Part shown: one piece after another, positions 2-63,838 of the stretch | Layout: each line of letters starts with the position of its first letter | How positions within the stretch are numbered: position 1 is the stretch's first letter | Assembly (NCBI GenBank): GCA_028554795.2 | Contig: CM068830.1 | Location: 110,125,214 to 110,189,213 of the forward strand | DNA length: 64,000 bases | Direction: 5' to 3' | DNA from: Sinohyriopsis cumingii | Taxonomy: Eukaryota > Mollusca > Bivalvia > Unionida > Unionidae | The notes under the pieces: generated by a model | What the model saw: only the letters and a program-made list of their open reading frames with translations | Database searches by the model: none | What the model was told of the DNA's origin: nothing | Program-made: the position numbers and the translations under genes

Positions 2-199
2 GCAATCTACACGCTCGATTCAACTGCTCCTCAACATGGATTCACACGTGAGCAATTACAAGTAATTCCCGAGGACACACAATTACCACCCCGATCACAT
101 AACTTGCGCTGGCGTCTCTACGTCGATTACATTCAAGACAGGTCAACATCACATTATCACGTGTATGACCGCACTGTTATCTTTTTCTATCTACGGTAA
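2..199 (+). CDS. C-terminal fragment of an unrecognised element-A protein (integrase end?)
   Basis: An open frame of 65 codons runs in from the window edge and stops at TAA 197-199. It looks like real coding sequence: it contains 'GFTREQLQVIPED' and ends in an aromatic tail 'RTVIFFYLR', with no stop. The 'FTREQLQ' part loosely resembles the stretch after the core of Polinton-type integrases, and an integrase would be expected at this edge, convergent with the polymerase-helicase. That assignment is weak, because no catalytic part lies in the window. It is separated from the helicase end by about 120 bases. Confidence 0.45.
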   Translation, partial: AIYTLDSTAPQHGFTREQLQVIPEDTQLPPRSHNLRWRLYVDYIQDRSTSHYHVYDRTVIFFYLR

Positions 200-318
200 A
201 TTGTCTTGAATTTTTATTCGAATACTGCCATAGCATTATACAATTACAGCTCGCGCAGTGATTATCATGCTGTTGTTTTAACGCGTTAATAAATTCAACA
301 TCAAGGTCGAACTCGCGA

Positions 319-1042
319 TTATTTTTTTGTCACTCTGTTTGTAACCGGCGAGTTTTTTCTTATTATGTCGCTGTTGTTTTCATTATTAATTTTATCAGCT
401 ATTGACTCTTCCAAGACAATTCTTTGCAGTTGAGATATTCTTCTGAATCTGGACACAGCCAAGTAGACCAAGTTCAACCATTCGGTTCTATCATGAACGA
501 TCCAGACAGTTGTATCACTGATAGTTAGTCCTGGAGACGAATGTATCGTCGCTGCGTATCCCAGCGTCCACGGGGATTTATTCATTTTTAGTGCATCTTT
601 GACAACATTGACATCAACTGTGACAATATCATTCAATACTAAATTCTGTTTCTCTGTTTTTCCAGGAATATCAACATCTATATTCTGTAACCGCGTATCA
701 GCTGGTCTATAACATAACGGTACTGGCAACATTGGAAACTTTTCTTGTTGTAATTGAAATAGCTGCTGTTGAAGTGTGTCTCTAACTATCTTTCTACTTG
801 CCACTATCAAATAGTCTGGTTTCCATTTTTTCCAAAAGTCGCTCATTGAAGTTTCAGGAATCATCTCGCGCATAATTTCGCATTGAATTGTATTCGGTTG
901 TAATCTGATTAATGTTTTATATTCCTTCAACGTTGCATCAAGTGCTCTATGATCATCAGACACTTCTTCATAATAATCAACAAAATCTTTTAACCACAAA
1001 TGCGGAGATGGACCAACAAAAGGTGGTGGCTGACCGTGATCA
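319..1042 (-). pseudogene. SF1 helicase C-terminal part of a polymerase-helicase gene
   Basis: Open from about 1042 down to TAA at 319. The first residues, before the first Met at 999, contain 'DHGQPPPF', which fits helicase motif III (GDxxQ). Later come 'LGYAATIHSSPGLTI' (motif V-like) and 'VYLAVSRFRR' (motif VI with the arginine finger). This is the second RecA-like domain of a superfamily 1 helicase and would act in unwinding during element replication. It is out of frame with the piece at 1040-2383, so one frameshift near 1040 separates the two. Apart from that break it is open over more than 220 codons. It converges with the coding end at 2-199. Confidence 0.75.
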
Positions 1043-2383
1043 CATTATCACTGCAGTATTCGCTGTTAGCAGCCAATCCAGAAACAATTTTAATATATCT
1101 AACGGTACCGTACATATCTCATCCCAAATTATTTTCCTTGGAATATATGTTGTTCCCATTCGATCTGGAGTCCATACACCACCGCTGTATTTGAAAAAGC
1201 TGTGATAAGTATAAGAATTGACTCCTCGTTGTTTCATCTCCCTGGCGAGCCTGTGTGTAGGTGTTAGCACAATCATATGTGAAGATTTTCCACGAAATAA
1301 GTCTATCGCTCGAGTTTTGTGTCTAGTGATTGGATCATACACAGATGGTGCGTTTGACATTTCTGATAATTCTGATTTACAATAATCATCCTTAATTTCA
1401 ACGTCAGCGGATTCACAATATCTATGTAACATTTCCTTTTTTATTCTCCAAGAACTCCATGATTCATCGTTGCTTGTAAAACAAGCCAGTGATTCTGAAT
1501 ATCTGCTACTGATATAAAATGAATCCGTTGCAACTCTAACTGCAGTGTCAGGAAATCGATTTATCATTGATAGCAAATTTATAGAAACATAAGCTAGCAT
1601 CGAAGATCTTAAATGTGTGTATTGAGGCGATTCTCCGCTAATATAACTTACAATTGTGCCCAAATTTTCCCCGTCGGACAAGAGCGTGTCCTCCCGATTA
1701 CAAAATATATTTCTCGCAACGGCATCAGCAATTATAAAATTTAATTCAGCGTCATCGATAATCAATCGACAGTGATGTAGTTTATGATCATATGCACCAC
1801 CTTGAGTAAATTTACCGATTATTCTTCGTCCGAGATCTTTTGCTGTTTTTTCAGTATTGCTGAGTTTAATCTTAAGAATTTTAGAAGCCTCACCAACAAT
1901 GACATCCAAGGGAGTATTTGGACTCTCTCGTGCATACTCGCCAATAACCTCATCCAAACTGATACATTCCGGTGTTGGCAACCAAACTGAAGTCTGCGGT
2001 TGATATGATATGATTGCTTCCCTGACTGTCAACGATACCTGTATTCGGCTGTCAAGCATATATCGCAATAACACTATTGGTGCCCAACGCTTTTCACTAA
2101 AGTGTCTGCCAAACCAAACATAACAGCACGGGTGAAGCTCTTTAGCAAATTCAAAGGAAGTCACACGAGCAAATCCTGTCAGGGTAAAATCGGGTAAAGA
2201 ACCGTTTATAGCAACTCGTGTCATCGAGTTCGTGGGATGTCCAAATCGCTTAAAGTATTCGCGGCACTCGTCCATCCCGAGAAAGCTTCCGAGATAACAC
2301 GCAATCATATCCACGGAAATCATATCCCGGTAGTCATACCGGGTATTCCACAGCCCGCCATGTCCATACTCGACACAACTCAA
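1040..2383 (-). pseudogene. polymerase-like palm fused to SF1 helicase N-terminal domain
   Basis: A 447-codon open piece. Residues 22-31 read 'ISVDMIACYL', a motif A-like palm strand. Residues 282-291 read 'VRVATDSFYI', a motif C-like site with the two acidic positions reduced to one Asp. The helicase starts near residue 370: 'IVLTPTHRLAREM' (motif Ia type) and 'KIIWDEICTV' (Walker B/DEAD-like, D421 E422). No GxxGxGK[ST] P-loop occurs where one is expected, between 'DPITRH' and 'KTRAIDLF' (about residues 350-362), so a short in-frame deletion probably removed it. The family is known to me as large polymerase-helicase fusions in eukaryotic mobile elements. It takes the place of classic PolB in this element. 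It is flanked by frameshifts near 1040 and between 2383 and 2577. Confidence 0.7.
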
Positions 2384-2576
2384 TTGTATATCCGAGAGAA
2401 ACTCACTTCGTGTTGGTCCACACGAATTTCTTTCTCTTGCGGTGTGAACGGCAACACTCGGAACTGTAAAACAATTAGTTAATACCTGCTCAGTATTTTC
2501 TTCAATTACATATTCTCTTCGAGTTTTTTCATTTGTTGTTGCAGAGACTCCGTCCGGTATAATTCGCCGTTAGATC

Positions 2577-2969
2577 TTACAAATTGATCATATTCGCCAT
2601 CTTCGGAACTTTTAAACAACCACATCGACACAGGTCATTTTTACTTATCTGTTTAATAAAATCAAATATATTCCCCTGATAATATTTCACAACACGATCT
2701 CGCGGAAATAGCGTAACTGCGTTAGTCCAAGCGTGAGTGTTATGATCAATGATATTAATTGGAGCCCCGTATCGATTATATTTCGATTTGGATAATACTT
2801 CCTCTGTTATCGTTGTTACGGTTATGGAAAATCTTAATGCTTTTTCTAACTCGGCGACATCGTTTATTGACGCTCCTGTGTGTTTGACTCGCTCCGCCCA
2901 CGCTGCTATCTTGGACTGTCTTAACGCAGTCAGACTGTTTCCGCGTATCGCATGTTTAAAATGTTCCAT
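2577..2969 (-). pseudogene. upstream part of the polymerase-helicase gene
   Basis: A 130-codon open piece starting 'MEHFKHAIRGNS' and ending near 2577. It lies directly 5' of the palm piece on the same strand but in another frame. A third frame between about 2384 and 2570 also looks coding, so at least two frameshifts lie here. It includes 'NTHAWTNAVTLFPRD', which suits a nuclease or palm-proximal region, but I cannot name a catalytic motif. I assign it to the polymerase gene by position and strand. It is less conserved-looking than the downstream helicase. Confidence 0.5.
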
Positions 2970-3029
2970 TACTCACTCGGCTACACAATTCAGCGCCAAC
3001 GACGAAGTCGTTTTCATCGGGTGAGTTTA

Positions 3030-3518
3030 TTAGTTTTTGGGTTTTTTTATCGGATAGATTCCATAAATGACCGAGGTCACAGGATACGCTCTCGAGTAAT
3101 ATGGTTTATCAATCCCAGTCAGCGCTCCTGGTTTGGAATCTTTACTTAACAGAATGGTCTTTCCGCTAGCAAGGACAGGGTCGAGTTTGTCATGGATAAT
3201 CCACGTATCAGAATCTGCTTGCACAATAAATTTTATTCTGAAAAAATAGTTCCGATTATCAAGATAATCAATAATTGATTTTGCTCGTGCATCATTCATT
3301 CTAACATCGATGACTTCGTCAACATTGACTGTGTCAATGTCGCGGATAATTTTGAATGACGACCACACATGAGATGCGCCGTCGTCGCGGAATTCTTTTT
3401 TGGCATTCCTGATAATATCAAACAGATTAGTCAGGTCTCGTCTTCGTGAGTCAGGGGTTAGTCTGTCAAGATCGAATCTCCCGGCGCCAATGGCAGATAA
3501 TCTTTCAAACTCCTCCAT
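3030..3518 (-). pseudogene. probable N-terminal part of the polymerase-helicase gene
   Basis: Reads from ATG 3516-3518 ('MEEFERLSAIGAGRFDLDRL'). I prefer this start to the Met at 3572, because 3572 lies inside the start of the divergent plus-strand gene at 3564. It ends in 'IKKPKN' followed by two stops. The piece at 2577-2969 is in the same frame, about 60 bases on, and an intervening stretch in another frame also looks coding, so this is probably one gene with small indels. The charged N-terminus has no domain I recognise. An alternative is a separate small gene upstream of the polymerase. Confidence 0.45.
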
Positions 3519-3563
3519 ATGATATTTAAGACAAATATTTAAATAAGAAATATTATATATAAA

Positions 3564-3800
3564 ATGAATCATTGTAAGTGGCTTGGTACAAAATCATTAA
3601 CCCTTTGTAATAAATCCTGCAGAGGTGAATTCTGCGGAAACCATTCCCAAAGCGTTCGAAGGGGGATTTTAGGGCCAATACCCTGCCTGCGATGTGGTGT
3701 TGGGGTCAGGGATAAAACACAGTTATGTGCAAGTTGCGGAGGAAAACGATACCCTGAACTCAAGCGATATTACAATAAAAAAATAACGATGTTGCGCTGA
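3564..3800 (+). CDS. small Cys-rich putative zinc-binding protein
   Basis: An intact 78-codon frame. Cysteines fall at residues 4, 15, 19, 24, 41, 44, 55 and 58, with His 27 between the groups. The second half, 'CLRCGVGVRDKTQLCASCGG', is two CxxC knuckles typical of a zinc ribbon. The C-terminus is basic. ATG 3564 follows an AT-rich TATA-like run without a gap. It is transcribed away from the polymerase-helicase gene, from a shared region of under 50 bases, and is followed by the HNH gene in the same direction. The function is unknown; nucleic-acid binding is a reasonable inference. Confidence 0.65.
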   Translation: MNHCKWLGTKSLTLCNKSCRGEFCGNHSQSVRRGILGPIPCLRCGVGVRDKTQLCASCGGKRYPELKRYYNKKITMLR

Positions 3801-3869: not shown

Positions 3870-4370
3870 ATGAGCCAAGAAGTTGTCCCACATACTATCA
3901 TTAAGAATTATGAAGCGAATCGCGAGGGAATAGTCAGACATTGCAGGTTGAAAAAACCAGTTGGTGTTGTTAATATTTCTGGTTATCTCACGTTCTCGTT
4001 TCGTGCTGATAAGCAGAAAAGTTATTGCTGTCATCGTTTTGTGTACGAGTGTTTCTTTGGGATAATCAAAGATGGTCTTGTGATCAATCATATCAACGGT
4101 GTAAAAACGGACAATACTTTATCCAATCTGAGGGTTGTCACACAAAGCCAGAATTGTAAATTTGGAAACACTGGATATAATGATAAAAGTGCCAGAGCAA
4201 TTTTATCTATAAATTTAGAGACTGGCGAAGAAATAATGTTTCAATCACTGTATGCAGCTGGCAAGTATTTTGATATTCACAGATTCTCAATACGTTTTGT
4301 CGCAGATAATATAACTAAATCTACCTTATCAAAAAAATATAAGCAGAAAATCACCTGTCAATATCAATAA
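3870..4370 (+). CDS. HNH endonuclease, homing-endonuclease type
   Basis: A complete 166-codon frame with TATATAA running directly into ATG 3870. Residues 71-82 'VINHINGVKTDN' followed by 'LSNLRVVT' are the signature of HNH_3-type nucleases, with the central His at 74. 'HRFVYECFFG' (His 55) precedes it as usual. Residues 110-166, from 'INLETGEEIMFQSLYAAGKYF', resemble the helix-turn-helix DNA-binding tails (NUMOD1 type) of homing endonucleases in phages and large DNA viruses. It probably nicks or cuts a specific DNA site, and may act in element homing or genome processing. It is one of the few undamaged genes here and sits on the opposite strand to the virion genes. Confidence 0.85.
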   Translation: MSQEVVPHTIIKNYEANREGIVRHCRLKKPVGVVNISGYLTFSFRADKQKSYCCHRFVYECFFGIIKDGLVINHINGVKTDNTLSNLRVVTQSQNCKFGNTGYNDKSARAILSINLETGEEIMFQSLYAAGKYFDIHRFSIRFVADNITKSTLSKKYKQKITCQYQ

Positions 4371-5079: not shown

Positions 5080-5470
5080 TAAATGTTGTAAATACTATGT
5101 GTCTGTACCGTCCTACTGTAAATAGTGTAAATACTGTAAATAGTGTAAATACTATATGTTGTGCTGTCCTTAGTTACGACTGTAAATAATGTAAATACTA
5201 TATGTTGTGCTGTCCTTAGTTACTACTGTAAATAGTGTAAATACTATATGTTGTGCTGTCCTACTGTAAGCTTGCTAAAATGCGGTGGCAATTTAGAAGC
5301 TTTGCAAATGTAAATATTATGTATAATAGTGTAAATACATGTAAATACTATATGTTGTACTGTCCTACTGTAAGCTTGCTAAAATGCGGTGGCACTTTAG
5401 GAGCTTTACAAATGTAAATATTATGTATAACAGAGTAAATAGTATAAATACTATATGTTGTGTTGTCCCT
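5080..5470. repeat. minisatellite of TGTAAATA-rich units
   Basis: Short units of the type TGTAAATAGTGTAAATACT recur, often with a GTTGTGCTGTCCT tail. Within this, two longer copies of about 110 bases, roughly 5250-5355 and 5356-5468, share an AAGCTTGCTAAAATGCGGTG block with few differences. No coding potential. Confidence 0.8.
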
Positions 5471-6785: not shown

Positions 6786-6876
6786 TATATAATACTCGCT
6801 TGATTAATTGTGAAATATATTTTTCTGCAGATTTCAATATTTTTTAACTTTTTTTTTTTACTGAAAAACGTTGAAT

Positions 6877-7020
6877 TTACTAGTAAACACCCTATCAAAT
6901 TTAGCAAATTGGACGATTTCTGTAATTTTTGCTAGTAACACCCTATCAAAATTAGCAAATTGGACGATTTCTGTGATTTTTACTAGTAAACACCCTATCA
7001 GAATTAGCAAATCGGACAGT
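6877..7020. repeat. tandem repeat, three ~52-bp units
   Basis: Unit 'ACTAGTAAACACCCTATCA' plus 'AATTAGCAAATTGGACGATT' repeated three times with few changes. It lies downstream of the penton-like gene and upstream of the small-gene pair. No coding signal. Confidence 0.85.
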
Positions 7021-7097: not shown

Positions 7098-8555
7098 TTA
7101 GGATTTCACCCTGATTGGAAGTCTTAAGGCTTGAAAATCCCTGGATTTCACCAGGACATTAATATGTAGTGTTTCATTCCGTAAATTAATAAGGTTCCCA
7201 CGTTGGTCTGTCAGCGCGAAATTTATTCTGGTCAGCCACGGATTATGACATCGTAGATAGACCGGTTTGATTGGCTTTTGCACAATCATAAATCCAGGTG
7301 GTTCTTTCGGAGTAAATGAATAAAGAATAAATCCTTGCTGGGCTTGATTTGATACTGTTGTGTCCGTGCTGTAACTGCCATCAATGACATCACACACAAG
7401 ATTAACCGCGACCAATTCAGTTATGTTTACGATGCCCGGGGATACATGCCGGCCTTGCCCTTCGGGGTCATTGTTGTATCTGAGGGTAGTTGGCTCCGGT
7501 AGTGTTCACATGTGTTGTGCAAGTATTTCATCAAAGGACTCATTGATGAGGTCGGTGACGGATTTTCTTAACTCGGGTACGTTATATCCGGGAAATTTAA
7601 AATTCGGCAGCGTGGCTTCCGTCAGTGAATAACCAGCTAGAAAGTTTTGCTTATCGTGAATGAATTCGTTATCAGTGTAATCAGTTATTACCTGAATTGC
7701 TCGCTGATTAATATGTTCCATGTCGGCGGCAAGCTGATTTAATATTTCAATCCGCGTAATAATTTCGCTGCGTGATCTTGCAAGATAAAAAAGATGCTCT
7801 TGGAAGAGCCGCCGTAGCTGCGTTAGTTGTCTTTTATGTTCTTGATTAATAGTTTTATAATATTCAATAATATCTCTTAGGTCAAGAATAATAGCACTAG
7901 TTCTTCCTCGGGTAAAAGCCCACCAAATATTGTCCTTGTCGGGGAAACCAAACCTGCTACCCAACATTGCACTTCTTATATTATCCAGATGTTGTTTATA
8001 TGACGGGCTAATTTCATGATATGATTGTTTGTTAGTGACATAGTCAGACTTTTTAGGTGTTGGTGGTATTGGTTGTACCGGTGGAGCGACTTCAGGCCAT
8101 CCTAACACTGTTCTGATCGAACTATTGTATATATCCACGGCGTAGTCTGGAGTGTTTATTTAGATCGCTGACGACAGCGTTGGCTCATGAACAGTTATTG
8201 TTATTTTGGATTCCTTTGTTGTGATATTTTTTATTCGACGTTGCAATTCTTCATTGATTTCTTCGATTTGATAAGACCCGGTTGGTAACCCAATGACGTT
8301 CCAGTCTGGCGTGACATCGGGTTTATTTTTATATGCTAATACAAACGAATTATTTGCTGGCAAACCACCAAACGATTTTGATCTGATATTGGGCCAACTA
8401 TGATATACTCGTAATTGTGCTAACGCGATCTCGCTTATTGGAATCGCAGTTGAAAAATTAATATTGAATTCTGGCTTAGTTGAGGTTACTGTTAACAAAG
8501 ATGTTCGCGTCGGGCTTGTATTTGCGACTATCTGCTGAAGTAATTCCGTTGACAT
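7098..8555 (-). pseudogene. penton-like jelly-roll protein with a large in-frame insert
   Basis: One frame from ATG 8555 to 7098, interrupted by a TAA at about 8160 and a TGA at 7506-7508. The three open pieces are exactly in phase. The N-terminal part ('LRVYHSWPNI', 'LPTGSYQIEEINEELQRRI') and C-terminal part ('GFILYSFTPKEPPGFMI', 'LTDQRGNLINLRNETL') match the two halves of a conserved structural protein of Polinton-like elements, which I take as penton or vertex. Between them, about 8100-7490, lie some 200 extra codons. These begin with a Pro-rich stretch ('VAPPVQPIPPTPKK') and continue as a charged helical region. The gene starts within the end of the hydrophobic gene at 8476-8925. The insert could be a lineage-specific domain, for example an exposed spike. 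Confidence 0.65.
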
Positions 8556-8925
8556 TGTTGTTATTTATCTGCTGTTTTTTCAAATCGAAGTACTTTATAC
8601 GTTGAGCATAATCGTTGTACATCTTTGCCATTTGCGCAAATTCGGAATCTGATATTGTTGTATCGTCAAGACTGGATGATATCAACGACGACAATTTCGA
8701 GTAGGTGCTCGTGGCCGCGCTGTTTAACTTTTCATATTCGTGCAATTTTGTTAGCGCACACGAGGATATTTTTTTCGCAATAATATTATCAACTCCTGCA
8801 ATTGTTGTTGATGTTGAAACTGTAATTGTGACCGCGATTGCAGTTGTCACTGGTGTCGGCGCTGATAATAATACTCCCGTAGATGCAACTATCTCGGATA
8901 CCGAATATACTACTGTGTCTAACAT
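8476..8925 (-). CDS. hydrophobic/helical small virion-type protein
   Basis: A 149-codon open frame. Residues 13-48 are rich in Val, Ile, Thr and Ala and hydrophobic. Residues 55-105 are helical with a heptad-like pattern ('KLHEYEKLNSAATSTYSKLS') and an acidic 'DDTTISDSEF' turn. The combination of hydrophobic N-terminus, 'HE' and 'ISDEF' helix is a pattern I associate with small proteins of cnidarian Polinton-like elements. Its last 80 bases overlap the start of the penton-like gene in another frame, and the fibre-like gene reads into its 5' end. Likely membrane-active or scaffold role, uncertain. Confidence 0.55.
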   Translation of the reverse strand: MLDTVVYSVSEIVASTGVLLSAPTPVTTAIAVTITVSTSTTIAGVDNIIAKKISSCALTKLHEYEKLNSAATSTYSKLSSLISSSLDDTTISDSEFAQMAKMYNDYAQRIKYFDLKKQQINNNNVNGITSADSRKYKPDANIFVNSNLN

Positions 8926-9969
8926 GATTACACGCCGTTTGTATTTTTTTACCTTTAACCAATTGAGGCGTCCTAGCGATAAATTCCAAACACCACCAGT
9001 AAGATGTTGCGGTTAATTTCTTGTCGGCGGATTCCAGTATAAATGTTTCTGCGGTTCCGCTATTTAATATGATAGTGACAACCCCGGAATACTTGTCGGT
9101 GGAATGTCTCCAGGGATATGTTGTGAAGATTAAAAATTTAGCGGCACTGAACACAGAAAACCTGAACACGCCAGTGACTGTCGCTGTATATTTGAACGTA
9201 TTATTTTGTTTAGACCATGTTGCAAATCCAGATGATACCGTGTACACTATGTTGGTGATATGCCCAGGAGTAACTCCAGTGGGGACTTTAATCAAACTGG
9301 TTTTGTTAAGTATCTCAGGAATCCCCGTTACGATATCCTGCTGTGTTTGTTTGATCGTGTCAATGTTGGTCTTGATATCAGAAAGTGTCATGTCGATGAC
9401 GGGAGGAGTTCCGAAGAACTTATCCGTGGCATCATCGATTTTTTGAAAGTTTCTTCGAAGTCTCGCAAACGCGTTTACATGAACATCATACTCGGCCCGC
9501 AACGTTGTTAGTTTACCGTCAATAGTGCTAGTGCCTGTGTCAACATATTGTTTGTTTGCGGCATCTTCCGGGGATGTTGGATCTCTCAACGCGTTTATTT
9601 TGTTGCCGTTGAGATTGAGGTCTCCTGTCATTGTATCACCGGTCTTTTTTACACATTCCTCTGCAGCTTTTTGCGTATCATCTTGAAGCACCGCGATTGA
9701 TATCAGCGAATCTCTGATTTTCCGCTATCAGTGAACACAGGAAGGTTACCCGAAGTAGCTCCAATAACCCTACGAATTATTTCATGCCATTTGATATAGC
9801 TGGTTTTTAATTTTCCGTGCCGGTCCTGAAAAATGACAACCTCATCTGGGTCTATCCCGGTTAGACTTAAAAGATTATCGATTTCATCTTTGGTCGCATA
9901 TTTTGATAAATCCACGTCGGTACGCTTTACTTTTCTGTTGAGAAGAGATCTTCCGTAAATATCAACCAT
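8789..9969 (-). pseudogene. fibre-like protein with phage tail-fibre motif
   Basis: Two open pieces, 9703-9969 and 8789-9691, in different frames, so there is one frameshift near 9700. The N-terminal piece starts 'MVDIYGRSLLNRKVKRTDVD'. The second contains 'TGDTMTGDLNLNGNKI' followed by 'DPTSPEDAANKQYVD', the well-known repeat of phage tail fibres. Next come a coiled-coil-like stalk ('IKTNIDTIKQTQQDIV') and a beta-rich tail of about 110 residues with a 'VTGVFRFSVFSAAKF' strand pattern, suiting a trimeric knob. The last ~45 residues overlap the gene at 8925 and may be read-through after stop loss. Likely a receptor-binding fibre of the A-element virion. Confidence 0.7.
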
Positions 9970-10043: not shown

Positions 10044-10795
10044 TCATATCGCATCAAGAATATTCAATACTTGCTGGCCACATATCGGAGGATCGGTCAG
10101 TGTTTGTGTTGGCAGCATTGAGTACCAAATTTTGTCTTTGACCCTGTCAAGGACGCGGAGATGTCTTTTGTATATCGGAGAAATTCAACTGGCGGTGCTA
10201 ACCCATACGAATCAAAATAGATAATTCCACGTGGATCGATCGCGTAAGCAACCCAATGAGTTCCTGGACCATCGCTGTTATCAAGATTAATAATTCCGGT
10301 TTCTGGATTATTCGGTTGTTGTGGTAATTGATCTCTCATAAAGACGCCTCTGAAATTTTTTATATTTAATTGTTTAACAGCATCAAGCAAATCAAAATTG
10401 GACATTGGTAGAAAACCAGCGGTTTTCAAAACCGTTTTGGGTACCATGTTGGTGGAGTTCCTGGAAGTCTTAGCCTTCGTCCCTCTTTTTTGTATCCTTT
10501 CCCTGTGGCTTTCTTTAGTGCCATTCCAGCAGCGGTTACAACAGCTCCTAACGCGGCCGCTTTGGTGACTGCGGGAGCAGCAGCAGCTATCAATGCTGGT
10601 ATTGCTGCGAGAAGTGGAAATGTACCACCGGTTTTAACTATATCTTTGACAGCTGCAGGAGAGAAATCAAGCTGAGTTCCAGTTTTCGCCTGCTTTGCTT
10701 TACTGAAATGTTTTAGTATGGTTTTAGTTAATGACAGTTTGTTTGGACCACCATTAGCGATTTGATCGTGTTTTAGTGTTATTTATGTCCCACAT
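10044..10795 (-). pseudogene. adenain-type protease with pVI-like hydrophobic N-terminal region
   Basis: The 5' part (about 10795-10450) reads 'LTKTILKHFSKAKQAKTG' and then an Ala-rich hydrophobic segment ('PLLAAIPALIAAAAPAVT') ending in a basic 'KKATGKGYKKEGRRLRLPG'. This resembles a membrane-active, pVI-like protein. The protease frame follows from 10447: 'GPGTHWVAYAI' (catalytic His, residue 64) and 'GIIYFDSYGLAPP' (Asp 79). The nucleophile lies in a shifted frame near 10100 as 'PPICGQQ', so a frameshift lies near 10125. Another shift, or a gene overlap, lies at 10447. The ending is TGA 10044-10046. Adenain-like cysteine proteases process capsid precursors in adenoviruses and Polintons. 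Confidence 0.75.
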
Positions 10796-10915: not shown

Positions 10916-12367
10916 CTACATGTTTTCCACTGGTGCATCAACGACTCTCATTCGACCACTAATACCTTCAAGCAGCATTGCTTTATCAGAAAGTATAACA
11001 GCAATTGCTCTGTAATCCCCGTGAACACCTGTCGCACCAACAGGATCAGGGACTGGTAACTCGCCGACAAGAGCTCGGAAGTGAATATCAACAACAGACT
11101 GCTTGGATAAGTCAAGATCCTCCAGCGAAAAGTAATAAATCGGATACAAGCTTGTAAAGTCAAGCTGTGATATTTGTGTGACAGTATCTATATTTAGGTT
11201 ACGCGCCAGAAATGTCAACCAGCGATGATATGCGCGCGCCACATGGTTATCTCTGTAACTCAGTGATATATCTTCGGATGGTTCTTGCTGGCCGTTTATT
11301 CTCAGCGAAACCTCAGTGACATTAAGTTTGTCAAATATCATATGAGACTTTAGTTGATCATTTGTTCGGGAAACATCCTGCAGCTCAATGAAGATATGTA
11401 TTGGCGCAGAAACCCCCTGTTGTGATGCTATATGCCAAGTAAACACATCCCTGACTCGACTTAAGACGGTGCCTGTGGTTACTGTAAGCCATGACATCAA
11501 TGATTTACCACCTTAATTCATAAAAGAAAGCAATCGCGGCTCTTCTGTGATCGATGGAGTTAGCACTGGCATCCTCAGTGAAAGTTTTGTTAGTGTTACC
11601 ATACCAGCATCAGCATCACTAGCTCCTCGCCAGATCGCATCATTGTCGTGGCCTTTTCTGTGAAGCATAAATGTGTGCCTAGCTCCAAAGATGACCTTTC
11701 GGTAATCTCTGCAAAATCCAAAGATGTGATTGAGTGGAATCGCGCATGAGAAATTTCTGGTATCTCCTGACAGCGTTGCTCCGCGTGTTGCAAATCCCAA
11801 ATTGTAAGTTCAGCTAATATCTTTTATAACCTCAAATTGATTAGCTGGTCTAGCCTCGCGGTCGGTATTGGCGGCTTCTGCCTGATCAGCAACTTCAGTA
11901 GCTACTGGCGTAAGTAACTTAATATACTGAGTATGATTGGCGTTATCGGTGACATCCTTGGCAAACATCTTTGATGGACCGAATGACCTTGTAAAGTTGT
12001 CAGAATATCTCGCCAGACCAATTATTGTTGTGGAAACATCGAGGTCGTTTTGAATTACTTCGATATTTTTCCCATCGATCATGTACGCGGCGCTATCAAA
12101 CAATGCCATGATTCAATTGTTGACAAAACCAACTCGGTCATTGGCGCCATAGTTAGTACCCTCTGCCTTTGTAAGCTTACCTTCTACTTCAATAAACGCC
12201 TCAGATGGCAAGAAATATCTGCTTGTATCGTGAACCTGAAGTTCAATACGCCCCCGTTGATTTGGATCTCGTGCATCGTAGGAATAAAATTGATGATCAC
12301 GCACCGATTTGTCTCGCTCGACCGGCTCATCTATATTGAATGCTGGATCGGATATCAGTTTGAACAT
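10916..12367 (-). pseudogene. major capsid protein (hexon-like), element A
   Basis: A single reading frame from ATG 12367 to 10916 (484 codons), cut by three in-frame stops: TGA at 12113-12115, TGA at 11810-11812 and TAA at 11513-11515. No frameshift was seen. The N-terminus 'MFKLISDPAFNIDEPVERDK' and the pieces that follow fit Polinton-type double jelly-roll capsid proteins in length and pattern. ATG 12367 directly follows TATAAA. It lies between the pX-like gene (upstream) and the pVI/protease gene (downstream). The stops show that it no longer makes a full shell protein. Keeping phase over 1.45 kb suggests fairly recent decay or past selection. Confidence 0.75.
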
Positions 12368-12388
12368 TTTATACTACTGCATGTGATT

Positions 12389-12817
12389 TCAAACGGACGA
12401 CCCCGCTATCAAATTTGCTGTAATATTTCGCTGCATGTCGGATTCCGTCGCCGATAGTTTTTGATTTGCGGCTTGATTTATTATTTTACTAACATTCGCG
12501 GGCATGGTTTCGGTGGTTGGTAATTTCACCGGTGAACCTCTTTGAGGGTTGCGTCTCATTAGTCGAGCTATTCTTTCTCTGATTGCCGAGAGTGCTTTGC
12601 CAGCAGCGCCAACAATTCCACCGGGGGTTTTTTCGCCAACAATATTAATGGCTTTCATAGATAGCTGTTTTGCAAGAGGACCCAACTTTGGAACCAATCC
12701 TGCAAATAATCGCTGAACTGTATCGCAAAATCCGTCTCCGTAAGTTGCTCTATAGATTGGTAATCGTGAGTTTACTGCGCGGATCTGAGCGCTTGTGTGT
12801 CTGTTATATATGACCAT
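12389..12817 (-). CDS. pX-like basic virion protein
   Basis: An intact 142-codon frame. It opens 'MVIYNRHTSAQIRAVNSRLP', followed by 'IYRATYGDGFCDTVQRLFAG', a hydrophobic and Gly/Ala stretch and a basic 'RERIARLMRRNPQRG'. The 'P-Y-R ... G' start and position directly before the major capsid gene match the 'YPVYQGVARQRRHRLG' protein of elements C2 and D. I therefore call it a counterpart of the small core protein of Polintons (pX-like). It probably condenses DNA or lines the capsid. The end is 21 bases upstream of the capsid start. Confidence 0.6.
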   Translation of the reverse strand: MVIYNRHTSAQIRAVNSRLPIYRATYGDGFCDTVQRLFAGLVPKLGPLAKQLSMKAINIVGEKTPGGIVGAAGKALSAIRERIARLMRRNPQRGSPVKLPTTETMPANVSKIINQAANQKLSATESDMQRNITANLIAGSSV

Positions 12818-12867
12818 GTTATGCTATTGCCATGTGTCTAATCGCGGTAACCTTAGTCACGGTGACC

Positions 12868-13942
12868 CTAGTCACTATCAACGAGCTCATCAACGAGTTC
12901 TTGATACATATGAGCATCCATGATGCCACCTTGAAATAATCTCCGGCAAATATTAGAGGCCTCATTAATTATTTCCGGCGAGTTGTTTCCGGCACGTCTT
13001 CCTCCGATGAGAACTTCTAGCCGAGACACATCATTGAAAATATTATCAGGGCAAGGAATTCCATAACCACTGCCAGTGGGTGGTGGCTGGGATTTTTTAC
13101 TCATCTCCTCCTCCTGTTTAATCTCTTCAAGTAATTGGTTAAAAGATTCATCCAGTTCGGGATTAGCAAAAGCTACACCCGAAACATTAGATGGATCGGG
13201 CACATCTGCATGTGGCACTGTTATCGACCGTGATGGTTTCTTGGGTCTTCCTCGTTTTTTTTCTCTGTCTGTTGCAACGGCGCAGGAAGTGAAAGGTCTA
13301 TTTCAGGCTGTCGCACAGGAGAAGGTTGACGTCGTTTTTCTTGTTGTTTTTGCACTTGTACTAATTTTGTTCTTGTTGTTTTTGCTCTCGTATTATTGTT
13401 TGCTGTTCTCGTTTTTCCACCAGTTGCTGTTGACGCGTTTTTTTTGTGCTGTTTTTCTGTTCTTGTTGTTCTTTATTGTAGTCGCGTATTCCTTTAGGAA
13501 AAACTGGATAACCAACATCTGTTCTGTCTATGGTGTAGTCGTTTGTAGCTATTTTATACAACCAATCATCCCAAGTATCTTATTTTGCACCTTTAACAGA
13601 CTCGGGTTTTAAATATTGATCTCGTCGCTGAAAATTTTCGGCAGCAAATCTACCAAAATCATAACTACTGTGGGCATCTGTCAATTCAAATTCCCCAATT
13701 CGCTTTATACCCTCAGGAGTAAATCTCGATTTGAGATCAATTATTTTTCGTCTAGCAGGCTGCAGCGCGGTTTGTTCTCGCAATACTTGAAAAAGACTTT
13801 TTCCTTCTTCTGGCCCTCCAATAGCAGTTAAAACCTTTTCAGTGATTGCAGTAACAGGCTTAAATAATTCCTTTGCTTCAGTTGCATACTCAACTTGTGC
13901 TTGTTGTTGTAATTGCACATCCTTTTTAAACTTTTCCTTCAC
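12868..13942 (-). pseudogene. helical scaffold-like protein with AT-hook motif
   Basis: Three blocks appear to form one gene. 13942-13361 is one frame with a TAA at 13580-13582: helical 'MKEKFKKDVQLQQQAQVEYA', then 'DTWDDWLYKIATNDYTIDR', then a Gln/Lys-rich coiled tail. A shift follows, and the frame of 13218-12868 begins upstream with 'KKRGRPKKP' (AT-hook like, near 13250). It continues with 'MPHADVPDPSN' and 'NIFNDVSRLEVLIGGRRAGN'. It could equally be two adjacent genes; the AT-hook lying in front of Met 13218 favours one. Role probably scaffold or DNA-associated virion assembly. Function not known. Confidence 0.5.
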
Positions 13943-14596
13943 CGGTATCTATTTTTTAAGTGCTTCTGCTCGCTCCCTAAACAACCTGGCTGTGTAAGAT
14001 TCTGAGTGTACCATTATTTGGTATAAGGAATTTTTAATTTATATCCTCGAGTTGGGTTAGATACAATTTTTAGCTAGAGAGCAGCAGAGAGGACGACGAC
14101 AGGCAAACCCTACCAGGATATTTTCCAGGGACAGACACAAAAACAAAGACGTGATTTATGTAACACAGAGCAGCAGAGAGGGCGGAACAATACCGAGTGT
14201 TTTCGCAAGATGGACCCTTGTATTAGCAGAAATAGTTGTATAGGTAGATATTTTCATGAGATAACCCTTCAAGTCAGCAGAGAAAGTCTATTTTGTCATG
14301 TTTACTGAATGGAGGGTTTATTTTGTGAAAAGAACCGCTCTATCTAAAATGTTCTCGATAGAAGGCTCTGTTAAGAGAAATAGTTTGTGGGATTCGCCCT
14401 CTCTGCTGCTGCACCTGAATCAGTGATCACCAGTGAAGACTGCCGTTTATGTAGGAATTGCATGTTGTAATTATCTTAGCATTTGTTGCTGCGCGCGCGC
14501 ATGTACCTTATGGGAGTAGATGTTTTCTAGTCCCATAGAAAGTTTACAGATAATCGCCTTGGCTGGGTTAGTTTATTAAGGAGTGACTCAGTAATC

Positions 14597-16200: not shown

Positions 16201-16899
16201 TCATGAATAAATTTGATCAAGACCAATTCGATACCGACTTCGTGGATCATGAAGATTTATCGTGATGAAACCATGCGGTGTCGCCTGAGCGCGGCTGAAC
16301 AAATTTTTGAATTTATTTATATCCATGTCACCGTTGCACCAGGTCTGATGGATATTTCTCAACGTGTGCGTGTCCACGCCGTTGAATACCGATAAGATAT
16401 TGCAATTGTCCCTGATCACCTTTGGAATCTGCGTATATCTCTGTGTCACGTAAATAACATCGGTGTTCTTGTGTCTGCCACGCGAGAATATCCTAGCCGG
16501 ATTAGTTTGTTTGTCCAGCATAACATCGTCGAATACAACAAGATTATTAATATCGCCGTCCAAATTTTCCACAGATGGAGCTTCATTGATGTCTGTGATG
16601 AATTCGATTGTGCCTTCGTCGGTATTGTCGCTAAATTCTTTTAACACCTGATAACAACGTTGATCGTCAACGGATGGTGCAACCAAGTACAACTTATCCC
16701 ATTTTAGCCATCGCATGATCAAATTCAATAACAATTGCGTCTTACCAGATCCTGACGGGCCGATGATTATCATTCTTATCGAATTCGGTAATAAAGAGAC
16801 AGTCATTTTTTCATCACCGAGAATCACGAAACTAAAGCTAGTGTCGTGTATTAGTTTCAAGCCATCTTTAAAGAAGATATGAGGAAATACTTTAAACAC
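16201..16899 (-). CDS. FtsK/HerA-type genome packaging ATPase, element A
   Basis: A 232-codon open frame. Walker A 'GPSGSGKT' is at residues 47-54 and Walker B 'LVVFDD' at 120-125. A sensor-like 'DVIYVTQRYTQIPK' lies about 20 residues later and an arginine-rich 'ARIFSRGRHKNTD' between them. This is the packaging motor of the Polinton/adintovirus group, which pumps element DNA into capsids. The C-terminus 'RSRYRIGLDQIYS' looks complete. The first codon here is GTG; the frame runs on upstream to about 16930, where a different element begins, so the true 5' end may be lost. Best-preserved enzyme in the window; a fragment of a close relative is at 63609-63838. Confidence 0.85.
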   Translation of the reverse strand: MFKVFPHIFFKDGLKLIHDTSFSFVILGDEKMTVSLLPNSIRMIIIGPSGSGKTQLLLNLIMRWLKWDKLYLVAPSVDDQRCYQVLKEFSDNTDEGTIEFITDINEAPSVENLDGDINNLVVFDDVMLDKQTNPARIFSRGRHKNTDVIYVTQRYTQIPKVIRDNCNILSVFNGVDTHTLRNIHQTWCNGDMDINKFKNLFSRAQATPHGFITINLHDPRSRYRIGLDQIYS

Positions 16900-16989
16900 A
16901 GTTACAAATTCATCGACGGGAGTACCGTGTCTGGTCTAAGCTAAAAATGAATCGTACTATAGTTGCATCGGATGATTCCCAGAGGAAGT

Positions 16990-18349: not shown

Positions 18350-19145
18350 AACACGGAAGTTGTGCCATTTTGCCCCACAAGCAATTTAACATCACTTTGG
18401 CAAACGATCGCCTTCCTTCGTTTTTGTCGATGTGGTCTAAAGTGATGCCTTCTTGTTGCTAGTATTTCTCTTTGAATGTCGTTTGGTCTTCAGGAGTGTG
18501 ACACCAGGAGGGATAGCTGGTGGCATCTTGTTTCACTTTCAAAAAGGCATCCACATAGTCTGCGAAAATGCCTTTCTGAGCTTGGTCACCCTTGTAGTAT
18601 TTCTGTGTCTTGGGAAAGTGGTAAATTTCGTATACTTCTAACAGTTGGTATCCCATGTCCAGAGATTTGAAAACTTCCTCGCTGATCCACGTTTCCGTCA
18701 AGGCACGTTCTTCCTGGGTGTGCTGACAAGGTTCGTCATGGTTGCACGTTTCGGCAAAAGTACGGCACAAAGGAAACATCCGTTTTTCTTGGCAATGGTG
18801 AGGTAACACGGAATGGTACAAATTGGTGGGAGGCAAAACTTTGCACTTGATCAAACCTTCGTTTTGTCAAATGTTGTTCAGGTCAATGTGTTGCGTCAGC
18901 ATGTGCGGGTTCCCAGTACGAAAACCATAATATTTGCACACGTAAGGATACAATGAAGACACGTCCAAGTATTTGATTTCTTCTCCTTTCTCTACATCAG
19001 CGTGGTACATCAAGCAGGTGGCATTTGTCCGTCATCCGTACAAACCATCCATCGGTTTCAGCCGGTCCACCAGCTTGTAACTTTCTACGATACTTTTAAA
19101 CTCGGGATCGGTTTAAAAACGGTGATCATATTCGTGTTCCCACAT
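18350..19145 (-). pseudogene. PolB palm/fingers region, element B
   Basis: Downstream part of the B PolB. Near 18950 the minus strand reads 'EIKYLDVSSLYPYVCKYY', which is motif A of protein-primed family B polymerases. 18459-18854 is an open piece ('MIKCKVLPPTNLYHSVLPH ... ALTETWISEEVF'). Near 18400 'KNEGRRSFAKVMLNCLWGKM' is motif B. Stops and shifts occur between them, and the motif C region beyond about 18300 is unreadable. The polymerase would copy the element DNA from a protein primer. Dead as it stands. Confidence 0.8.
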
Positions 19146-20522
19146 TTACACCACTTGGTATCCTTGCTGTTCTAACTTCAAGCATCGCTGACAAGTAGCC
19201 TGGTACAAGACTTCAATGGTTCGTTGTAAAAACTGATTTTTAGTACCACGTTGAGGGTAACAGACGGGACATCCGTGAAATAAGCAACCGTTAAGTTCGT
19301 ACACGATCTTGAGGTTTTCAAAGTCCCAACGATCCATTAAATACATTCCAATAGTCTTTTCGCCTCCTCCGTTGCGGTCGTGCTGGATCCATTTGTCTTC
19401 CTTGTCGCACAAGTAATGAAACCATTGTAGGGCTTTGACCTAGTATTGACGTTTGACAAAATTGGTTGTTTAGGTCTGGTTACAGCCAGGGTTTTTTCGG
19501 GCATGAATTGTTGACGGTACACTAAGGAACATGCTTTGGCAATGGTGCAAGTTTCTTTCAAAGGATCGACCCCTCCGTGTTCCATGAACAGTTCTCGAAA
19601 TTTTCCACAGCAACGTCGTAAAATGTCCACGTTGGAACGACAATACTTTAACATTTCTTCCTGAAAGTCGAAGGGTCTGAGGGGTGAGCCTGGTACCAAG
19701 CGTAGAAAGCGTCTCGTTGTTCGGTACGCATGCTGTCGGGGTCGCAATCGTGAGCCTCAGGTAAATGGGGTAGAATGGTATGTTGATTGGCTTCCGTATT
19801 GAAAAAGTGAGGAAAATAACCTTTGGCCGTTTTTGTTATTCCAAATGTTTCAGGCATTCGGCTCAAAGGCATAGCCAAGTAACTCATTGAATCTTTAAAC
19901 TCCACTTGTCCCACTTGCATGTAAATGATTTTGGCTCCGTTCAAAGTCACTTTATTTCGTGCAGTGTCTTGTTCCATAGACTATCTCAAAATAAACTGTC
20001 CATCATATCCCGAAAAATTGTGAGCCATTACTGTGGCATGGCGATGACAATCTCCGTAACGTTCGATGTCCTCATGGCTCCACGTTTCGTCGATTGGGTC
20101 TTCGAACGATTCTTTCACTTCCTCTTGCTGCAATGAGGGCAATGACTAAAGATAGGCTCTTGGATGCACTTCTCGCACGATCGGTGAGCCACACAGAAAT
20201 TAGGAATGTGAATGCCAATCTCTTGCATACATTCGAAATCGAAAAAGATGAAATTCCCTTTCTTCATGTGGTCATCACCTTCATATTGGGGTTGGTATTT
20301 CTGAATGTAGCATTGATGTTCCAAGTCCACGATTTGGTGACAAATGTGACATCGTTTCTTTCCTGAACATACGTGTGCCTTGGCATTATTGGTACGTATG
20401 CCTTTTCCACACGTAGGACACAATCTCATGAGTGACAAGCACTTTTCTGCTGTGAACCTTGTGTCTTCAGATGTTGTTGGTAACAGGTTGGACTGACAAA
20501 AGTGCACTGACAAGCAGGGCAA
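19146..20522 (-). pseudogene. PolB exonuclease and middle region, element B
   Basis: Open pieces 20115-20522, 19648-19977, 19337-19747 and 19146-19412 follow one another in shifting frames. 20522 on: paired cysteines ('CHICHQIVDLEHQCYIQKY'), then 'FIFFDFECMQEIGIHI', an exonuclease motif I (Asp/Glu). At 20000-20035 'MAHNFSGYDGQFIL' is exonuclease motif II. Later 'GVDPLKETCTIAKACSLVYR' and 'LNGCLFHGCPVCYPQRGTKN' are typical of the Polinton polymerase between exonuclease and palm. At least four frameshifts or stops. The same landmarks recur in C1 on the plus strand. Confidence 0.85.
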
Positions 20523-21650
20523 GGCAATGCATTCGTTCTTGTACTTCGTTCAGACAGGGTTGAGAGGCCAAACATCCCTTACATTTTGATCCACAATTCT
20601 TGTGCTGCTCTCGGTTGTAATAACCTTGGTCACATTTCTCACAGTAATAAATGTATCTCAGGAATCCAGTGATACTGATTATGGTATCGAATTGTTCATC
20701 TTGATGATAGACTTGAATTTATTTTTCGTCTTTGAAATCTTTGCCTCGAAACAACAGAGATCCGCGCACTTCTTGAGGATGCACTTTCAAGGACATCTTG
20801 CAATTTTTGCATTTCAGGAATGCCACAGCGTGTGTCTTTGGATAGCCCCGCTTGCTGTTACAGGAGTTCTGCTTATCTTTGTTGTTTGGCACGACTCGAT
20901 GTTGGAATTGTTTGCAAGGCTCGCTTCCATTCTGTCGTGTCGATCTTGTCGGCCTACATTCCCAACAAGATGGCTCGGGCTAAACACATCTGGTATTGAG
21001 GGTAGTTAATTTGGACGAGGCTACGCTTGATGCTACGAAGGTCATCCACCAGTAACACTTTTCTGCGCTCTCGGGTCCCGTTGTAGAGAGAGACGTGAGC
21101 CATGAATAGTGTCGCTTTTCCATCGGTGATGTACAATGTGTCGTTGGATTGTTGCACGTGTTGTATCTGGTTGATGACTTTGTAAGGTGTCAATTTTGCT
21201 GAGCTGCTAGACTCGATCCAAACAGGGGACTTCAAGCGTCGTGATGAATGGAAAGTCTCAAGCGATCGTCTTCTTTCGCTTGACATTGGCGTTTCAGAGT
21301 GGATAACAAAGAATCCCACACCTCGGTGATGAAGCCCTCTTCTTTATCCAGTGGTACGTTAGACTTGAAATCTTTAAACTTCACCGAGAGGTGTATGCCG
21401 TAGTTCTAAATTTTCTGGAGGAACACGTTTCCATTTCTCGAATGTGATAGTAATTTTCAGGATTTAATAATGGTGGTGAACTTTGGCTGGGTGTGTGATT
21501 GCTGTGTCTGGATTCTGGTTCGCTTATGTCATCTTCAATGTCAATGGCATGAAGCTGTGCCAAGATTTCAGCTACTGTACGAGGCGATAAATCACGTTTC
21601 TGTCTCTTAATTTCTTCTCTTTTCTACACGAATTGATGCGATTGTTTCAT
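20523..21650 (-). pseudogene. PolB N-terminal and Cys-rich region, element B
   Basis: Starts at ATG 21648-21650 with a stop a few codons in, then an open stretch through 21381 including 'LAQLHAIDIEDDISEPES' and 'NPENYYHIREMETCS'. The C1 copy at 34283 has the same start pattern ('EVLAIIHASDFEDDMSQP'). Between 20950 and 21320 only short patches remain. From about 20700 to 20500 a Cys-rich zinc-finger-like stretch ('YYCEKCDQGYYNREQHKNCG') leads into the exonuclease part. This N-terminal extension is usual in animal Polinton polymerases. Confidence 0.7.
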
Positions 21651-43750: not shown

Positions 43751-44490
43751 ATGGCTACCTCTTCTGCCTCCGCTCCTTCTTCCTCCACTTTCAAAGTCAT
43801 CAACGAACACTTAGATCGTGCCACTTGGGAGGCTTTATATCTTCGCTATCCTGTTAACATGCTCATTCCTCGAACTAGTGGTTCAGGCAAAACCGAATTT
43901 GTCAAACATTTGATCGAACATAAACATCATTTGATCGATTGTCCACCTCAACGAATCGTGGGGTGTTACAAAGAGTGGCAATCGGAGTACAGCCTCTTGC
44001 GAGAAAGTCATGGCGATTCCATCGTGTTTGTGGAAGACATTCCTAACGAAGACGAAGGAACCGTGTCTGACCCCAGTCAAACCCATCTGGTCATTTTCGA
44101 AGACATGTTAAGAGAAGAAAAAGAGGATATTAAAGTGGTTTACGCGCAAAGGACATAATCGTAATGCCAGTGTCATTTACATTACTCAAAATTTGTTTCA
44201 ACAAAGTAAATCCCATCGCACCATCAGTCTCAATGCTGATAACGTGGTCTTGTTTAAAAGCTCTAAATATAAATCGCAAGTGTAAGTCTTAGCCAAACAG
44301 TTAGGAACACCTTGGCTAACTCATGCGTACTACGATGCCACTCAAACCGCACACGCATATTTACCCGTCGATTTGAAACCCGCCCACCCCCCGATTATTT
44401 ACGATTTCGTACCCATTTGCTTCACCACTGGTGTCAAGACGGAGGGCCTATCGTGTACATGTCACCATTCGCTCCCTCTTAAAATGGGAT
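43751..44490 (+). pseudogene. packaging ATPase, element C2
   Basis: ATG 43751 'MATSSASAPSSSTFKVINEH'. Intact P-loop 'TSGSGKTEFVKHLIEH' near 43880-43920 and Walker B 'THLVIFEDML' near 44083-44110. The frame ends at 44158 and resumes one frame over with 'ASVIYITQNLFQQSK' (sensor region) and 'ISLNADNVVLFKSSKYKSQV', a stop, and 'TPWLTHAYYDATQT'. One frameshift near 44140 and later stops. FtsK/HerA-type packaging motor of the Polinton group, clearly a different branch from the A-type ATPase. Confidence 0.85.
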
Positions 44491-63608: not shown

Positions 63609-63838
63609 TTATGTAGATATCTCTCTCCGCTGCACCAAGTTTGATGAATATTTCTTAGGGTATGTGTATCAATTCCGTTTAAATACAGCTAAAATAATAC
63701 AGTTATCCCTGATCACGTTTGGTATTTGTGTATATCATTCAGTGACATAAATTATATCTGTATTTATATGTCTGCCTCTGGAAAATATTCTAGCTGGATT
63801 TGATTGATTATCCAGCATCACATCATCGTATACTGCTT
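63609..63838 (-). pseudogene. fragment of an A-type packaging ATPase
   Basis: Reads 'YDDVMLDNQSNPARIFSRGR' then 'DIIYVTE', a stop, 'YTQIPNVIRDNC' and 'CSGERDIYI'. This matches the A ATPase from Walker B onward (its residues 123-190) with about three changes in four lines of text. Upstream, where the P-loop should be, a TA microsatellite begins. A short isolated relic of a second A-lineage element, or the edge of one that lies to the right. Confidence 0.8.

What the first reader, a model, noticed from the sequence alone, without database searches (positions are those of the whole stretch)
319..3518. Virion-type element that replicates with a polymerase-helicase fusion instead of protein-primed PolB
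Element A has the full structural set of a Polinton-like virus (capsid, penton-like, protease, ATPase, fibre-like), yet its replication gene is a polymerase-like palm fused to an SF1 helicase (motifs at residues 22-31, 285-288 and 421-422 of the 1040-2383 piece). This pairing of a Polinton-type morphogenesis set with another replication module may define a separate virus group.
Basis: partly seen in the sequence, partly recalled or inferred. Interest (0 to 1): 0.8.

Follow-up and report, generated by a model that had tools for sequence, protein, structure and literature searches.

The report
Tlr1-type endogenous virus, probably in mussel
The window holds a broken copy of a 16-19 kb virus-like element, repeated many times in what is probably a mussel genome, that carries virus-particle genes together with a DNA polymerase fused to a helicase, a combination previously described from single-celled organisms.

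The parts
2..199 (+). C-terminal end of the RVE-family integrase ORF; its core lies left of the window in L030 8122-9000
   Evidence: Matches the C-terminal part of the integrase ORF L030:5218-6219 by eye; rve PF00665 E 2.3e-8 in L030:8122-8796
105..3515 (-). pPolB-SF1 helicase replicase (Tlr1-like helicase), broken into five frame-pieces
   Evidence: tblastn of P0001-P0116; 94 scored places in own genome, window copy included
3030..3572 (-). replicase piece: N-terminal domain
   Evidence: P0089 residues 3-307 align to window 3515-2634
2577..2972 (-). replicase piece: middle domains upstream of the palm
1040..2569 (-). replicase piece: PolB-type palm (motifs SVDM..CY, IGKFTQG, VATDS) and first half of SF1 helicase; Walker A missing, Walker B WDEIC present
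319..1044 (-). replicase piece: second half of SF1 helicase (motifs V GYAATIHS, VI VYLAVSR)
   Evidence: motif strings (motif names recalled)
105..329 (-). replicase piece: C-terminal HNH-like stretch
   Evidence: aligns with P0010 residues 674-748; motif QFTVDR; Pfam HNH only at E 0.18 in one of 12 relatives
3543..3800 (+). zinc-ribbon protein
   Evidence: relative in L030 1473-1694, 74%; Pfam DZR only sub-threshold
3870..4370 (+). HNH endonuclease
   Evidence: PF13392 E 1.3e-12; PHROG HNH E 4.8e-25
7098..8564 (-). putative minor capsid (penton-like) gene in three pieces
8789..9724 (-). fibre-like protein
   Evidence: PHROG tail fibre E 6.1e-7; 20 of 20 copies
10097..10782 (-). adenain-like protease fused to a short N-terminal domain, frameshifted here
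   Evidence: Peptidase_C5 sub-threshold, E 0.011, 0.021 in L023 and 0.17 in L018; 19 of 20 copies
10916..12373 (-). [quoted passage not shown]
   Evidence: PF21738 E 1.2e-10 and 2.1e-18 / 3.1e-19 in L023 / L018; at least one piece in 20 of 20 copies, C-terminal piece in 19
12389..12823 (-). conserved ORF whose identity follows the MCP type
   Evidence: 19 of 20 copies
12868..13302 (-). conserved ORF of unknown function
   Evidence: 20 of 20 copies
14164..14410 (.). right terminal inverted repeat; element ends at 14410
   Evidence: matches the left ends L031 1878-2121 and L032 2144-2384 and right ends of 11 of 20 copies
16201..16935 (-). A32-type packaging ATPase, outside this element (piece of another copy)
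   Evidence: PF04665 E 3e-12; lies 1.8 kb beyond the right repeat; in the family the ATPase is at the left end
18459..21343 (-). separate broken DNA_pol_B_2 element
   Evidence: pieces in the fetched flank of 1 of 20 copies

Best explanation
The sequence is the decayed remains of an endogenous Tlr1-type polinton-like virus. Shown: the family includes 15.8-19.2 kb units bounded by ~245-bp inverted repeats (left tip AGCAGCAGAG) and 5-bp target-site duplications. Left to right in window orientation the order is ATPase, PLA2-like protein, RVE integrase, pPolB-SF1 helicase-HNH replicase, penton-like gene, fibre, protease-like gene and double-jelly-roll capsid (integrase and PLA2-like gene seen beside four elements only). 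Inferred: the linear genome is copied by the replicase, whose palm is of the protein-primed kind and whose SF1 helicase opens the template. The integrase inserts the linear ends and makes the 5-bp duplication. The ATPase fills a capsid whose PLA2-like and fibre proteins serve entry. The window copy can do none of this: replicase frames are broken, Walker A is deleted, and the left end with the ATPase is missing.
Against: No Tlr1, TvV-S1 or transpoviron sequence was held for direct comparison and no tree was built. Left repeats were found in only 10 of 20 copies and right repeats in 11 of 20. TP and vOTU-like domains were not resolved (N-terminal model pLDDT 64). The mCP has no family match above cut-off and the protease is sub-threshold. 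Tlr is reported to lack the protease (PMC4028283). Expression, particles and current mobility are untested. The host is inferred, not named.
Confidence: 0.88

Rival explanations
1. The replicase belongs to an unrelated transposon inserted beside a capsid element.
For: In the window alone, about 3.5 kb with repeats and two + strand genes separate replicase and capsid genes.
Against: Same neighbours in 20 of 20 other copies fetched; replicase and capsid inside the same TIR/TSD-bounded unit in 9 of 9.
Confidence: 0.01
2. An ordinary Maverick/Polinton or adintovirus whose replication gene is the PolB at 18.5-21.3 kb.
For: Same strand as the capsid genes, 1.5 kb from the ATPase at 16.2 kb; weak DNA_pol_B_2 matches, best E 6e-5.
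Against: Lies outside the right repeat at 14410; pieces of it in the fetched flank of only 1 of 20 copies; TSD is 5 bp where vertebrate Mavericks have 6 bp (PMC8097293, passages).
Confidence: 0.03
3. A pure transposon: the virion genes are ancestral baggage and the family spreads only inside the genome.
For: High copy number, RVE integrase and TSDs are enough for spread by re-integration.
Against: Virion genes are still recognisable in 20 of 20 copies, with an MCP frame of 431 aa in L018 and 297 aa in L023; fibre and PLA2-like genes make most sense for particles (inference).
Confidence: 0.3
4. A satellite (virophage-like) virus that uses a co-infecting large DNA virus, as PgVV and known virophages do.
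For: Related replicases occur in transpovirons and in PLVs, some of which depend on giant viruses (PMC11071308, passages).
Against: No helper virus or late-promoter signal was examined; RVE integrase and PLA2-like gene suit an autonomous animal virus equally (inference).
Confidence: 0.15

Closest known systems
Tlr1 element of Tetrahymena thermophila
   Same: RVE integrase, palm-SF1 helicase fusion with a C-terminal endonuclease domain, double-jelly-roll MCP, packaging ATPase (as described in PMC11071308 and PMC4028283, passages)
   Different: Host probably a mollusc; HNH-like stretch instead of the GIY-YIG reported for Tlr1 (PMC12721341); protease-like gene (reported absent in Tlr); PLA2-like gene. 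Sequence of Tlr1 itself not compared
Polinton-like viruses with Tlr1-like helicase (PgVV-like and TVS-like contigs, Tetraselmis viridis virus S1)
   Same: Replicase type and double-jelly-roll virion module (PMC4642659; PMC11071308; passages)
   Different: PLVs are described as mostly lacking the RVE integrase; described hosts are algae or unknown
Transpovirons
   Same: pPolB-SF1 helicase replicase
   Different: No virion module (PMC11071308, passages)
Maverick/Polinton and adintoviruses of animals
   Same: RVE integrase, TIRs, MCP, ATPase, protease-like gene
   Different: Replicase is a palm-helicase fusion rather than the polinton pPolB; TSD 5 bp rather than the 6 bp of vertebrate Mavericks
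OmPLV of Oxyrrhis marina
   Same: SF1 helicase-pPolB fusion in an endogenous PLV (PMC12721341, passages)
   Different: There the helicase is N-terminal and the exonuclease is kept; here the helicase is C-terminal of the palm

Membership tests
Tlr1-type polinton-like virus | Large protein with PolB palm followed by C-terminal SF1 helicase | tested here: met
Tlr1-type polinton-like virus | Palm of the protein-primed kind | tested here: met
Tlr1-type polinton-like virus | First Asp of motif C (DTD) replaced | tested here: met
   RVATDSFY in 8 of 8 loci L002-L009, of which L002 is the window copy and L003 its duplicate
Tlr1-type polinton-like virus | RVE-family integrase in the same unit | tested here: met
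   PF00665 E 9.3e-9 and 2.3e-8, above cut-off, in both elements of L030; same ORF by eye in L031; L032 by 85% DNA match to L031; not tested in the other copies
Tlr1-type polinton-like virus | Double-jelly-roll MCP and packaging ATPase | tested here: met
   PF21738 E 2.1e-18 and 3.1e-19; PF04665 E 5.2e-12; ATPase C-terminal end in the left-end stretch of 18 of 20 copies
Tlr1-type polinton-like virus | Penton-like minor capsid protein | tested here: inconclusive
   gene conserved in 20 of 20 copies but no family match above cut-off and no structure made
Tlr1-type polinton-like virus | N-terminal TP and vOTU-like domains, exonuclease lost | tested here: inconclusive
   N-terminal model of relative P0028 has pLDDT 64; only the palm gave clear matches
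Tlr1-type polinton-like virus | Phylogenetic grouping with Tlr1 and transpovirons | not tested
   reference sequences not held; no tree built
Maverick/Polinton | Polinton-type pPolB as replication gene between the repeats | tested here: inconclusive
   pieces of the neighbouring PolB in 1 of 20 fetched flanks and outside the repeat in the window; but the ~5 kb next to the replicase was not read in most copies and only this one PolB was used as query
Maverick/Polinton | 6-bp target-site duplication (as in vertebrate Mavericks) | tested here: not met
   5 bp in 9 of 9 copies
Transpoviron | No virion module | tested here: not met
   an MCP piece in 20 of 20 copies
OmPLV-type fusion | Helicase N-terminal to a complete pPolB | tested here: not met
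   helicase motifs follow the palm

The most novel reading that the evidence does not exclude
This family is the first recognised lineage of Tlr1-type viruses that infects animals: recently active and perhaps still particle-forming in molluscs, swapping capsid modules between two MCP lineages on a shared replicase backbone, and belonging to a replicase clade also found in sea slugs and arbuscular mycorrhizal fungi, which would imply spread across opisthokonts.
Probability: 0.35. Interest if true: 0.75.

Novelty: new variant of a known kind. Interest (0 to 1): 0.58.

Why it matters
In the papers I could read, Tlr1-type replicases are described from protists, algal viruses and giant-virus plasmids. 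A high-copy family in a probable mollusc, with both ends, integrase and capsid genes, would extend that lineage to animals. It gives many insertions with target-site duplications to study and shows capsid modules recombining on one backbone. It also cautions that capsid genes, a PolB and an ATPase lying side by side in an animal genome need not be one virus.

Tried and rejected
IMG/VR scans with the replicase piece, replicase alignment, ATPase and ATPase alignment gave no confirmed locus. The one genome contigs locus (L001, 3.1 kb, a MAG contig labelled Diapherotrites) carries only a broken relative of the replicase and no context. The phage collection gave only helicase-region matches, mostly annotated RecD- or Dda-like. 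Rfam: nothing at gathering scores. The 91-nt inverted repeat 17740-17830/24115-24205 was considered as a TIR and rejected: a tRNA-like B box lies beside it (seen by eye; motif recalled), so SINE copies are likelier. Left repeats were found in 10 of 20 copies and right repeats in 11 of 20; ten had both, and I dropped one of these (no. 09) before the TSD count because its left alignment did not reach the tip. In copy 17 the script missed the duplication by one base because of a gap (one search prints False) and I scored it by eye (ATATA on both sides). Only the capsid-side flank was fetched at length; the planned opposite-flank control was not obtained, and the TSD-bounded units stand in for it. 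Genome-wide ATPase, MCP and PolB counts did not complete. A loose motif pattern missed Walker A in L005-L008; a tblastn of a relative's stretch then showed the stretch present in 7 of 9 loci and absent in the window copy and its duplicate. No tree was built. Krupovic 2016 (vew019) is not held and was not read.

Full report
WHAT IS IN THE SEQUENCE. Between 3515 and 105 on the minus strand lies one broken gene. tblastn of 116 database relatives against the window places them along 3515-2634, 2634-2521, 2563-1046, 1065-323 and 329-105 in changing frames; single relatives cross several of these pieces, so the four ORFs of the finding are one gene. The best relative of the 1040-2383 piece is a protein of the bivalve Sinanodonta woodiana (E 7.8e-118), with a second Sinanodonta protein at 5.8e-92; between them rank unnamed proteins and one of the fungus Diversispora epigaea (1.2e-106). 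Other named relatives come from Elysia sea slugs, Glomeromycotina fungi (Rhizophagus, Gigaspora, Cetraspora, Racocetra) and MAGs named Candidatus Thiodiazotropha; most of the 116 have no name. I read the MAG hits as host DNA in the bins, which is inference.

THE WINDOW COPY IS DEAD. Besides frame breaks, 13 residues that include Walker A are missing in frame; the stretch is present in 7 of 9 loci compared and absent only in the window copy and its duplicate. That duplicate lies 186 kb away on the same contig at 100% identity over the query, so the loss is older than the duplication, if that is not an assembly artefact.

LINKAGE TO THE CAPSID GENES. The genome search answered once: the window is C7:110125214-110189213 of a 2.9-Gb assembly of 1138 contigs, and the replicase piece has 94 scored places, the window included (27,064 first-look candidates, a capped and similarity-ranked list), at 85-100% identity; by my count 51 of 94 have no stop inside the matched stretch. 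I fetched the stretch 5-15 kb upstream of the replicase for 20 copies chosen by hand and searched window pieces separately: penton-like N-terminal piece 20 of 20, fibre 20, ORF12868 20, MCP C-terminal piece 19, protease 19, ORF12389 19; in the copy without the C-terminal MCP piece (L014) another MCP piece was present. The neighbouring PolB was present in 1 of 20, the packaging ATPase in 3 of 20 in this stretch. Outside this genome, an MCP relative (P0185) and a replicase relative (P0069) are both listed from ENA on a contig of length 14727; only that MCP hit of 27 lies on a contig over 10 kb, so I take it as the same contig, but I could not fetch it.

ENDS. Downstream of two other copies (L031, L032) shared sequence stops sharply (positions 2122 and 2141), and the last ~245 bp match window 14164-14412 in inverted-repeat sense. 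A 500-base reference from L032 finds right repeats in 11 of 20 and left repeats in 10 of 20 copies. The 1-kb stretch at the left-end distance holds the C-terminal end of the ATPase in 18 of 20 copies. Of ten copies with both repeats, nine could be read to the tip: each left tip reads AGCAGCAGAG and each copy is flanked by an identical 5-bp direct repeat (8 by script, copy 17 by eye; shifted control 0 of 648). Lengths are 15.8-19.2 kb. By coordinates, replicase and capsid genes lie between these ends in all nine. So the element is one insertion unit, and in the window it ends at 14410. The left repeat and own ATPase of the window copy are missing: in L030 its PLA2-integrase part runs into a neighbouring element in opposite orientation.

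OTHER GENES. L030 shows, beside the replicase, an integrase (PF00665, E 9.3e-9 and 2.3e-8, above cut-off), a phospholipase A2-like protein (PF08398, E 5.9e-15 and 1.3e-13), the ATPase (PF04665, E 5.2e-12), an HNH endonuclease (E 4.3e-15) and a zinc-ribbon protein without a Pfam match above cut-off. L031 shows the integrase and PLA2-like ORFs by eye, and L032 matches L031 at 85% DNA identity over that part. Window 2-199 is the end of the integrase. The MCP matches PF21738 (E 2.1e-18 and 3.1e-19 in two copies). The protease is sub-threshold (E 0.011-0.17 to Peptidase_C5).

HOST. Not named by any tool. By lengths or coordinates seen, C1-C12 and C14-C19 are at least 71 Mb each (C13 was not seen). 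Named sources of the closest proteins are a bivalve for the ATPase (84% over a third of its length in Sinanodonta) and a bivalve, then a fungus, for the replicase; no MCP relative is named. n = 19 for unionid mussels is recalled. I put a bivalve at about 0.7.

COMPARISON. PMC11071308 (passages) describes Tlr1 as a PLV variant with RVE integrase and, in place of a plain pPolB, a multidomain protein with C-terminal SF1 helicase; it argues that the palm is protein-primed and probably active, and notes C-terminal GIY-YIG or HNH domains. PMC4028283 (passages) gives Tlr's MCP, penton and ATPase and says the protease is absent there. PMC10120064 (passages) says metazoan MCPs outside the Maverick cluster were found only in Cnidaria in its set; whether the present MCP falls in that cluster was not tested. 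PMC8097293 (passages) gives 6-bp duplications for vertebrate Mavericks. PMC10294476 (passages) mentions Mavericks in all mollusc genomes it analysed, without more detail. Searches for such elements in molluscs or animals (listings) showed no report by title; the library lacks most subscription papers and Krupovic 2016 was not readable, so absence from print is not shown.

HOW IT LIKELY WORKS. Shown: gene content, order, ends, duplications, fold of the palm. Inferred: protein-primed copying of a linear genome, helicase-assisted strand displacement, RVE-type insertion, packaging and entry with PLA2-like and fibre proteins. Whether particles form now is unknown.

Confidence went from 0.90 to 0.88 and the host estimate from 0.75 to 0.7, because repeats were found in only half of the copies and the third-best replicase relative is fungal; the polinton-pPolB row was changed to inconclusive; one search was added.

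Noticed in passing
L010-L029: Two MCP lineages on one backbone: 5 of 20 copies have window-type MCP (84-89% identity) with ORF12389 at 83-86% where found (4 of the 5), 15 have another type (59-69%, ORF12389 47-56%), while penton-like, fibre and protease identities do not follow this split. Looks like capsid-module exchange between copies.
   Followed up: partly
window 18459-21343: A broken PolB (DNA_pol_B_2) element with N-terminal zinc-finger-like cysteines, followed near 21.8-22.1 kb by a + strand stretch with CCHC-like repeats; PolB pieces also lie 2.7 kb beyond the last capsid-side ORF in L024 (7881-9716), where no right repeat was found.
   Followed up: partly
window 16201-16935, 63611-63833, 14097-14168: Three pieces of the packaging ATPase in the window; the last sits at the inner edge of the right terminal repeat, as do short ATPase matches in L018 and L025, which suggests the repeat once copied part of the ATPase.
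   Followed up: partly
L030 1-7409: A second element of a diverged subfamily (66% DNA identity) lies directly left of the window copy in opposite orientation, with long open frames.
   Followed up: partly
window 5114-5468 and 6876-7017: Tandem repeats (18, 46, 104 and 51-bp units) between replicase and capsid genes of the window copy.
   Followed up: no
window 43853-44219 (+): A weak match (25-42%, E 9e-5) to the packaging ATPase, perhaps another virus-derived gene.
   Followed up: no
Glomeromycotina fungi and Elysia sea slugs carry relatives of this replicase at 31-43% identity; for R. irregularis a Polinton without a detected MCP is reported (PMC7805220, passages).
   Followed up: no
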